Of a stretch of DNA of 64,000 bases, positions 26,160 through 27,785 are shown piece after piece (within the stretch, counting starts at the first letter, position 1; each line of letters starts with the position of its first letter). The notes under the pieces are model-generated. The model did not search any database. It was not told the origin of the DNA and saw nothing but the letters and a program-made list of their open reading frames with translations. Both the position numbers and the translations under genes were made by a program. The stretch comes from an uncultured Dehalococcoidia bacterium (GTDB lineage Bacteria; Chloroflexota; Dehalococcoidia; Lucifugimonadales; UBA3495): positions 1 through 64,000 of the forward strand of contig CATOSP010000001.1 of NCBI GenBank assembly GCA_951812625.1, given 5' to 3'.

Positions 26160-27785
26160 TCACGGACCCGTGTACAACTCTGTGTCCGGGTGGAACTGGA
26201 ACCAACCAAACCAGAATGACATGTGGGTGGGTATCCGCGCGAACTTCTCCGACTCGTCTGCCCCGTTGACGAGGAACTCCTCAGTCACGTGCCATGTGCC
26301 ACCTTCGGTGTCCGATATCAAGGGTGGGATCCCAGGGTAATCGCCGCTGTCCTCTGGCTCCAGCTTGAACGACCTGTCCCTGCGGTAGTAGGCCCTTGCG
26401 CCCTGGCTCGCATCCGACCCCAACACCACTATCTCCTCGCCTCCCACCGCGTCATTAACTATCCGGCGCTCCTGCAACAATGCGGAGGGGTAGGCCTTGG
26501 AGCTGTCGTTCACCTGTACCCCCAGCACGACGTCCTTCGCTTCAAGCCGGTCGTCCCGGTCAGGGACCGGGAACATCGTCTCAGGCGCGTTGAAGTAGTC
26601 GTAGTAAATCGCCTGCGGGTCCTCCTCCGGCACATAGAATTTGGCAGGATACACGCCTGTCTCCTGGTCGAGCACCGTGGTGTCGGGATGAAGCTCCAGC
26701 CATTCCTCCCACGTGGTCAGGATGACCGGAAAGAAGTCGAGCTTTATCCCGGAGTCCCATAACGGCCCTATGACAGGTTCGCTGGTGAGCTGATTCCAGA
26801 GCGAGTTGGTCAGCCGATCGTACATGACCTTGTTGCTGCGGTACAGCATCCCAGACGTGCCGAATGTGGTTGGCTCTCCGTTGATTCTGGCGGAATACAC
26901 GATTCCGGTGCCGCAGAGCGTTCAATAGGCCAGGGCGATGGGTTCGCCCCCCAACACATCGTTGGCCATCTCATGGGCGTTCACGATGCGCAGCGGGTAC
27001 GCCCTGTGCTCTCCGTTGATTGACACGCCGAATACCCGGTCGCCCGGCTGCAGGTAGTCCTGCTCGCCCGCCAACACGACCGGGGCATTCTGAAGGTCAG
27101 GTATCCCGTCGGGCAGGACACCTCCCCACGCGATCTCGGATACGTTTATCCGTGAGCCCTGCGCCGCCGGAGCCAGGAACTCGCCGAACCTGGGGTCGAT
27201 CAGGCTCATGAACGCGCCCTTCCACTGCACGTACCCATTGGGGGGAACGTACTCGTCGGCGTTCATGCCCAGCCACTCCATCCACTCATGCCAGGCGTCC
27301 CACACGTTACTGGTCTCCCGGCCCGTTATAGCCGAGATGGCCATGTCGGTCTCTTCCACGAGGTCCGGGTCACCGAAGAAGCGGAGCATCTCGATCATGA
27401 CCGGGACCATCGACCTGTCGTTGTTGGCGACAGAGAGTGTGATGGCCTCGCGTGTGTCATTGGGGTTTTGGTTCCAGGCCGAGAAGAACAGGTGCATGTT
27501 CGTAGTGGAGTCGTAGCCCGTGGCGGGAGTAGGTACTTGCTCGGATGGCGGCTCGGGGGTTGTAGTCGAGGCCGGCACGGCCGTGGCAGTCTGAGTCGGC
27601 AAAGCTGTCGTCGTGCTATCGACCGGTGAGGTTGGAGTCGGCGCAGCGGTCGCAGTCTGTGCAGGTGAAGCCGTTGGTATGCTGTCAACCTGTACGGTCG
27701 GCTCTGCCATACCGGAACAGGCCAAAGCAACAGCCACTATAAACCCGGCAGTCAGGGTTCCGAAATAACGCCAGAACTTAGTCAC
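26160..27785 (-). CDS. DUF3179 lipoprotein, candidate selenoprotein (in-frame UGA at 26922-26924, AYUTLCGT)
   Basis: ORFs 26922-27929 and 26160-26900 are in one frame separated only by TGA at a conserved Cys position of DUF3179 (...GEPIALAY[TGA]TLCGTGIVYSARINGE...); GTG start at 27785 preceded by GGAAGG; lipobox VALACSG. Confidence 0.75.

What the first reader, a model, noticed from the sequence alone, without database searches (positions are those of the whole stretch)
26160..27785. DUF3179 lipoprotein with UGA in place of the CxxC cysteine (UxxC): possible undescribed selenoprotein family
Seen: on the minus strand ...GEPIALAY-TGA-TLCGTGIVYSARINGE... is open on both sides in the same frame; TGA is at 26922-26924. 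DUF3179 proteins normally read Y-C-P/T-L-C-G-T here, so the UGA sits on the first Cys of a CxxC motif (AYUTLCGT). The protein has a lipobox (VALACSG), so it would be an exported Sec-lipoprotein. A random nonsense mutation landing on that codon in an otherwise intact 541-codon gene is unlikely, and a second UGA=Cys gene lies about 11 kb away.
Basis: partly seen in the sequence, partly recalled or inferred. Interest (0 to 1): 0.92.

Follow-up and report, generated by a model that had tools for sequence, protein, structure and literature searches.

The report
Selenocysteine-containing DUF3179 lipoprotein in Chloroflexota
A predicted exported bacterial protein of unknown function carries the rare amino acid selenocysteine, read from an in-frame 'stop' codon, where most relatives carry cysteine; the call is very solid, but this kind of selenoprotein is already on published lists, so what is new is mainly how common it is in this bacterial group.

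Summary
The gene at 26160-27785 (minus strand) is open except for one TGA (26922-26924), which replaces the first Cys of the conserved CxxC of DUF3179.

The selenocysteine reading is very strongly supported. The genome has three DUF3179 genes, each with exactly one in-frame TGA. In 95 of 95 TGA-bearing relatives fetched, the TGA falls on this codon. A SECIS-like stem-loop follows the UGA in 103 of 108 Sec genes but in 1 of 48 Cys genes, beyond what the protein sequence requires and with compensatory base changes. The genome encodes SelA, SelB, SelD (itself with UGA) and tRNA-Sec(UCA). TGA copies without a detected SelA occur only in incomplete bins. Codons after the UGA are under purifying selection.

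The claim 'undescribed family' is wrong: DUF3179 (UxxC/T) is listed as a selenoprotein family in reviews of 2022 and 2026, credited to a 2007 study. OsmC, the nearby second gene, is also a listed family.

New here: an expansion in Chloroflexota with several Sec paralogues per genome, interleaved Sec and Cys forms, an internal duplication of DUF3179, and a tentative Rieske-like fold for its redox half. Function is inferred: an extracytoplasmic redox lipoprotein.

The parts
26160..27785 (-). DUF3179 selenoprotein gene: GTG start, 541 residues with Sec288, TGA terminator
   Evidence: homologues start at the same place; alignment without decay
27717..27785 (-). signal peptide with lipobox VALACSG (lipidated Cys23), followed by a Pro/Thr-rich linker
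   Evidence: sequence; residues 1-83 of low model confidence
27159..27509 (-). helical N-terminal domain, residues 93-209 (no Pfam match)
   Evidence: structure model, pLDDT mostly 89-97
26181..27110 (-). DUF3179 domain, internally duplicated; repeat 1 (residues about 244-299) carries UxxC, repeat 2 (about 413-468) lacks it
   Evidence: hhalign of the two halves, prob 98%, E 6.9e-14
26922..26924 (-). UGA read as selenocysteine (Sec288), first position of UxxC
26913..26915 (-). Cys291 (TGC), second position of UxxC, presumed resolving Cys
   Evidence: invariant in 154 of 154 aligned sequences
26890..26908 (-). predicted bacterial SECIS stem-loop CCGGAAT-CGTGT-ATTCCGC, beginning 16 nt 3' of the U of UGA, apical loop with the conserved G
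38503..39498 (+). second predicted selenoprotein gene in the window: OsmC-like (PF02566), TGA at 38686-38688 (AAWAAUTIVT)

Best explanation
The gene encodes a secreted lipoprotein of the DUF3179 family in which UGA288 is translated as selenocysteine by the host's own SelA/SelB/SelD/tRNA-Sec system, directed by a SECIS stem-loop immediately 3' of the codon. Sec288 and Cys291 form a UxxC pair at the active site. Inferred, not shown: it acts outside the cytoplasm as a reductase or electron-transfer protein cycling between selenol/thiol and selenenylsulfide, possibly on a Rieske-like beta fold. Probability that UGA is Sec: about 0.97. Probability of a UxxC selenol/thiol redox role as opposed to a metal site: about 0.6. 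The substrate is unknown. The confidence given is for the selenoprotein call.
For: Three DUF3179 genes in the genome, each with exactly one in-frame TGA. In 95 of 95 fetched relatives with one TGA it lies at the first Cys of [U/C][P/T/V]LC. The codon there is TGA (108 unique), TGC or TGT. SECIS: 103 of 108 Sec genes versus 1 of 48 Cys genes fit one stem at fixed distance; Watson-Crick pairing is 0.98, 0.88 and 0.90 in three subgroups against 0.63, 0.52 and 0.49 for synonymous-codon shuffles (z 13, 17, 11), with no comparable excess in Cys genes. Compensatory changes GC/CG/TA, GC/CG and AT/CG/TA occur at three pairs; the loop G is present in 108 of 108. Machinery: tRNA-Sec UCA, SelB, SelA, SelD with UGA. 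Thirteen SelA-lacking genomes have DUF3179 only without TGA. dN/dS after the UGA is 0.14-0.22. Sec and Cys forms change at least 4-6 times on the tree.
Against: No protein-level or 75Se evidence. The window's own SECIS has 6 of 7 stem pairs, and the MFE fold of this one 48-nt segment prefers another pairing (z +0.7), so here the SECIS rests on the family comparison. TGA copies without a detected SelA occur in eight relatives, all incomplete bins (56-87% complete). The function of DUF3179 is unknown, and the PDB fold matches are below significance.
Confidence: 0.93

Rival explanations
1. The TGA is a nonsense mutation or sequencing error in an ordinary Cys-type DUF3179 gene (pseudogene or artefact).
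For: Most DUF3179 proteins outside this order have no stop here, and the source is probably a metagenome assembly.
Against: The same codon is TGA in 95 of 95 TGA-bearing relatives, and all three paralogues of this genome have one TGA. Downstream codons are under strong purifying selection. A SECIS specific to TGA-bearing genes follows. Stops of other kinds seen in Cys forms (TAG/TAA in L178-L180) lie elsewhere in the gene.
Confidence: 0.01
2. UGA is reassigned genome-wide (to Cys or Trp), not read as Sec in context.
For: In-frame TGA aligns with Cys, and two divergent paralogues have Trp (TGG) at the site.
Against: The gene itself ends at TGA at the conserved C-terminus. Other genes of the genome have no internal TGA in their matches (SelA, SelB). 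A full Sec machinery and a SECIS are present. A codon-based scan of the window finds TGA-interrupted coding frames only rarely.
Confidence: 0.01
3. The Sec/Cys pair serves as metal ligands rather than as a dithiol-type redox pair: the N-terminal half is a Rieske-like fold whose motif CxH-x16-CxxH has become NxH-x16-[C/U]xxC, binding a metal or modified Fe-S centre with Sec as a ligand.
For: The single-repeat model finds mostly Rieske ferredoxins, NirD and Rieske oxygenases at the top of the PDB list (5bok prob 0.97, TMt 0.58; 3c0d TMt 0.55, rmsd 3.6; 3gce TMt 0.56). The spacing His271-x16-Cys288 equals that in most Rieske proteins of the same genomes. His271 is conserved in 146 of 154.
Against: No Foldseek E-value below 0.1; profile-profile comparison gives probability 0.3%. 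The place of the first Rieske Cys is mostly N/S/T. UxxC in other selenoprotein families is thought to be redox-active (PMC13188914).
Confidence: 0.2

Closest known systems
DUF3179 domain-containing selenoprotein (PF11376, UxxC/T; Zhang & Gladyshev 2007, listed in PMC9312934 and PMC13188914)
   Same: Same Pfam family, Sec in a UxxC motif.
   Different: Here in Chloroflexota (Dehalococcoidia-related MAGs), several Sec paralogues per genome, a lipoprotein with an extra helical domain; the reviews list one representative each and no function.
OsmC-like selenoprotein (PF02566, UxxT; Sargasso Sea 2005, PMC1088965)
   Same: The second UGA gene of the window belongs to this Pfam family, with Sec in it.
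   Different: The context is U-T-I-V, not UxxT; the protein is about 330 aa with an apparent second OsmC-like half (by eye) and scores only 37 bits against Pfam.
Rieske [2Fe-2S] ferredoxin/NirD fold
   Same: Tentative fold similarity of DUF3179 repeat 1; His-x16-Cys spacing.
   Different: No first Cys ligand, last His replaced by Cys, no significant sequence similarity; membership not claimed.
UxxC thiol-disulfide selenoproteins with thioredoxin fold (Trx, DsbG-like, TlpA-like)
   Same: UxxC motif; in part extracytoplasmic.
   Different: The DUF3179 domain model is mostly beta, not a thioredoxin fold.

Membership tests
Bacterial selenoprotein (criteria of PMC1088965) | In-frame TGA aligned with Cys of homologues | tested here: met
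   TGA in 108 unique sites, TGC/TGT in 48, same column
Bacterial selenoprotein (criteria of PMC1088965) | Conserved TGA in at least two distinct sequences | tested here: met
   95 of 95 fetched TGA-bearing relatives
Bacterial selenoprotein (criteria of PMC1088965) | Stem-loop just downstream of UGA with small apical loop containing G | tested here: met
   window itself 6 of 7 pairs, loop CGUGU; bSECISearch itself not available
Bacterial selenoprotein | Sec machinery (SelA, SelB, SelD, tRNA-Sec) in the genome | tested here: met
Bacterial selenoprotein | Selenium demonstrated in the protein | not testable with these tools
   needs 75Se labelling or mass spectrometry
DUF3179 (PF11376) | Match over the Pfam gathering score | tested here: met
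   267.1 bits against cut-off 27
Rieske (PF00355) | CxH...CxxH ligand set | tested here: not met
   position 269 is mostly N/S/T, last ligand Cys; no Pfam Rieske match
Rieske (PF00355) | Rieske fold | tested here: inconclusive
   consistent but non-significant matches; no sequence support
Thioredoxin-fold UxxC oxidoreductase | Thioredoxin fold | tested here: not met
   mostly beta model of the DUF3179 domain; no thioredoxin-fold protein among the PDB matches listed

The most novel reading that the evidence does not exclude
DUF3179 is a duplicated, Rieske-derived fold whose cluster-binding loops have been converted into a His/Sec/Cys centre, so these proteins would be exported selenoproteins in which Sec occupies the place of a Rieske Fe-S cluster ligand and acts either as a metal ligand or as a new, non-thioredoxin dithiol-type site.
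Probability: 0.2. Interest if true: 0.7.

Novelty: new member of a known kind. Interest (0 to 1): 0.4.

Why it matters
Under the standard code these genes fall into two pieces at the UGA (here 26922-27929 and 26160-26900), so the redox centre of a common exported protein of these bacteria is likely to be missed in annotation. The recurrent Sec/Cys switching within one order gives a natural set for testing what Sec adds over Cys. The family's function is unknown, and the fold lead (Rieske-like, duplicated) gives a first testable idea.

Tried and rejected
Codon-usage scan for other UGA genes: the first version was badly trained and found nothing useful; the second recovered the DUF3179 UGA but missed OsmC, which was found by reading the TGA=U frames. 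PDB sequence searches with the protein and with profile A2 gave no relatives. Foldseek with the whole model gave no significant PDB match; against viral models it gave one significant hit, an uncharacterised Indivirus protein, not followed. Gene neighbourhood: no neighbour of the window gene is conserved next to its closest homologues, and recurrent neighbours in the wider set were mostly shadow frames or near-identical genomes, so context gives no function. Profile comparison with Rieske proteins of the same genomes: no sequence support. NCBIfam has no model matching the protein. The 2007 source paper is not held, so its description rests on the two reviews. Pseudogene, sequencing-error and code-reassignment readings were rejected (see rivals). 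An early strand-guessing script mis-oriented some loci; the check supersedes its counts.

Full report
WHAT IS THERE. On the minus strand the frame 27785-26160 is open for 541 residues apart from one TGA at 26922-26924 (codon 288) and ends at a TGA. Read through, it matches Pfam DUF3179 over residues 226-535, E 2.7e-79. The protein starts with a signal peptide and lipobox (VALACSG), then a Pro/Thr-rich linker, a helical domain (93-209) and the DUF3179 domain; AlphaFold2 gives mean pLDDT 84, with most of the chain from residue 91 on above 89. Named relatives retrieved are nearly all Chloroflexota or Dehalococcoidia MAGs, up to 74% identical in the best segment.

IS IT MORE THAN CHANCE. The genome has three DUF3179 genes and each has exactly one internal stop, a TGA. 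Among 118 relatives, 85 have DUF3179 and a large share of the listed matches have exactly one TGA. I fetched 95 of these; in all 95 the TGA is the first Cys codon of the [U/C]xxC motif, with no other stop in the 60 codons examined around it. Over all loci read, the codon there was TGA in 108 unique sequences, TGC in 40 and TGT in 8. The few TAG/TAA stops seen in Cys-type copies lie elsewhere, which is what random damage looks like. Codons downstream of the UGA evolve at dN/dS 0.14-0.22 against five relatives, lower than upstream, so the downstream part is translated and functional.

SECIS. In 84 Sec genes positions 16-22 after the U of UGA pair with 28-34, and in 19 more positions 16-21 pair with 30-35; only 1 of 48 Cys genes fits either. 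Against shuffles that keep the protein sequence, Watson-Crick pairing is 0.98, 0.88 and 0.90 in the three main Sec subgroups versus 0.63, 0.52 and 0.49 expected (z 13.3, 17.4, 10.7), with no comparable excess in Cys genes. Three pairs show clear compensatory exchange (GC/CG/TA at 17-33, GC/CG at 19-31, AT/CG/TA at 20-30), and the second loop base is G in 108 of 108. This fits published descriptions of bacterial SECIS elements (stem-loop immediately 3' of UGA, small apical loop with G: PMC1088965). In the window the stem is CCGGAAT-CGUGU-AUUCCGC with 6 of 7 pairs; a single-sequence MFE fold of the window segment prefers another pairing, so the SECIS claim for this gene rests on the family. The z values treat related sequences as independent and should be read as large, not exact.

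MACHINERY. The genome encodes tRNA-Sec with anticodon UCA, SelB, SelA (558 bits) and SelD, whose own gene has an in-frame UGA at HCAGUAAK. SelA is over its cut-off in 100 of 118 relatives. In the phylum-wide sample, 12 genomes have a TGA-bearing DUF3179 match covering the motif region (exact position not checked there) and all have SelA; the nine genomes without SelA over the cut-off have only copies without TGA. In the order, SelA-lacking G080 (97% complete), G091 (91%), G073 (81%) and G008 (66%) also have no TGA in DUF3179, while TGA copies without a detected SelA occur only in bins 56-87% complete. Relatives are not independent, so this is consistent evidence, not a test with a meaningful p-value.

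EVOLUTION. On a tree of 154 DUF3179 domains (the Sec/Cys column masked), Sec and Cys states need 6 changes, at least 4 on well-supported branches (mean of shuffled labels: 40); Sec and Cys have been exchanged several times. It is a FastTree tree with some long branches, so the exact number is uncertain.

WHAT IT MAY DO. C288 and C291 are kept in 154 of 154 sequences (Sec written as C; the motif was part of how the set was picked), as are Asp276, Asp323, Trp330 and Gly340; His271 is kept in 146. The domain is an internal duplication: residues 244-299 and 413-468 match at probability 98%, E 6.9e-14, and only the first copy has the redox pair. The whole model has no significant PDB match. A separate model of the first copy (pLDDT 81) gives mostly Rieske ferredoxins, NirD and Rieske oxygenases among its best matches (5bok prob 0.97, TMt 0.58; 3c0d TMt 0.55), with E-values of 0.14 and up. 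By spacing, NxH-x16-[C/U]xxC corresponds to the Rieske CxH-x16-CxxH, the spacing seen in most Rieske proteins of the same genomes; but profile comparison gives no support (prob 0.3%) and the first Cys ligand is absent. I take the Rieske relation as a lead only. Most likely role: an extracytoplasmic selenol/thiol redox protein; substrate unknown. Gene context does not help: the neighbours (CoA-transferases, luciferase-like monooxygenase, Opp-type ABC transporter) are not conserved.

WHAT IS KNOWN. DUF3179 as a selenoprotein family with UxxC/T is listed in PMC9312934 and PMC13188914 with a 2007 source; only three papers in the library mention DUF3179 at all. OS_HP1 in the GOS survey (UxxC, one Sec and 69 Cys sequences) may be the same family (my inference). 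OsmC-like selenoproteins are listed since 2005. No paper in the library mentions SAR202 together with selenoproteins, and an early survey credits Chloroflexi with three selenoproteins (PMC1794560), so the present density in these genomes appears little described. Hence: a new member of a known kind, with an expansion that is unreported as far as this library shows.

Noticed in passing
38503-39498 (+), TGA 38686-38688: OsmC-family gene with in-frame UGA (AAWAAUTIVT), about 330 aa with an apparent second OsmC-like half; similar 338-405 aa TGA-bearing frames recur in G003, G007, G010, G018, G020, G026, G027, G029 and G032. Many OsmC genes of these genomes carry one TGA.
   Followed up: partly
L076:424 (-), L077:1407 (-): Divergent DUF3179 paralogues have TGG (Trp) at the Sec/Cys position and lack the second Cys (TWWPVTYSA), in the same contigs as Cys-type copies: possibly non-catalytic descendants.
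   Followed up: no
L052 (G000:C2:793402-794325): SelD of this genome is itself a predicted selenoprotein (HCAGUAAK).
   Followed up: partly
model mcc55551bef7b (protein of 26160-27785): A significant fold match (E 5.7e-8, TMt 0.51) to an uncharacterised 236-aa protein of Indivirus ILV1, suggesting a relative of part of this protein in a giant virus.
   Followed up: no
genomes G127, G168, G177, G225, G249, G265: In another Chloroflexota family some genomes have full-length copies without TGA plus a short 345-aa TGA-bearing copy whose match falls in two pieces (profile 1-149 and 183-292), apparently a separate Sec subfamily.
   Followed up: no
27940-30630 (-): Two adjacent CoA-transferase family III genes lie directly upstream of the DUF3179 gene.
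   Followed up: no
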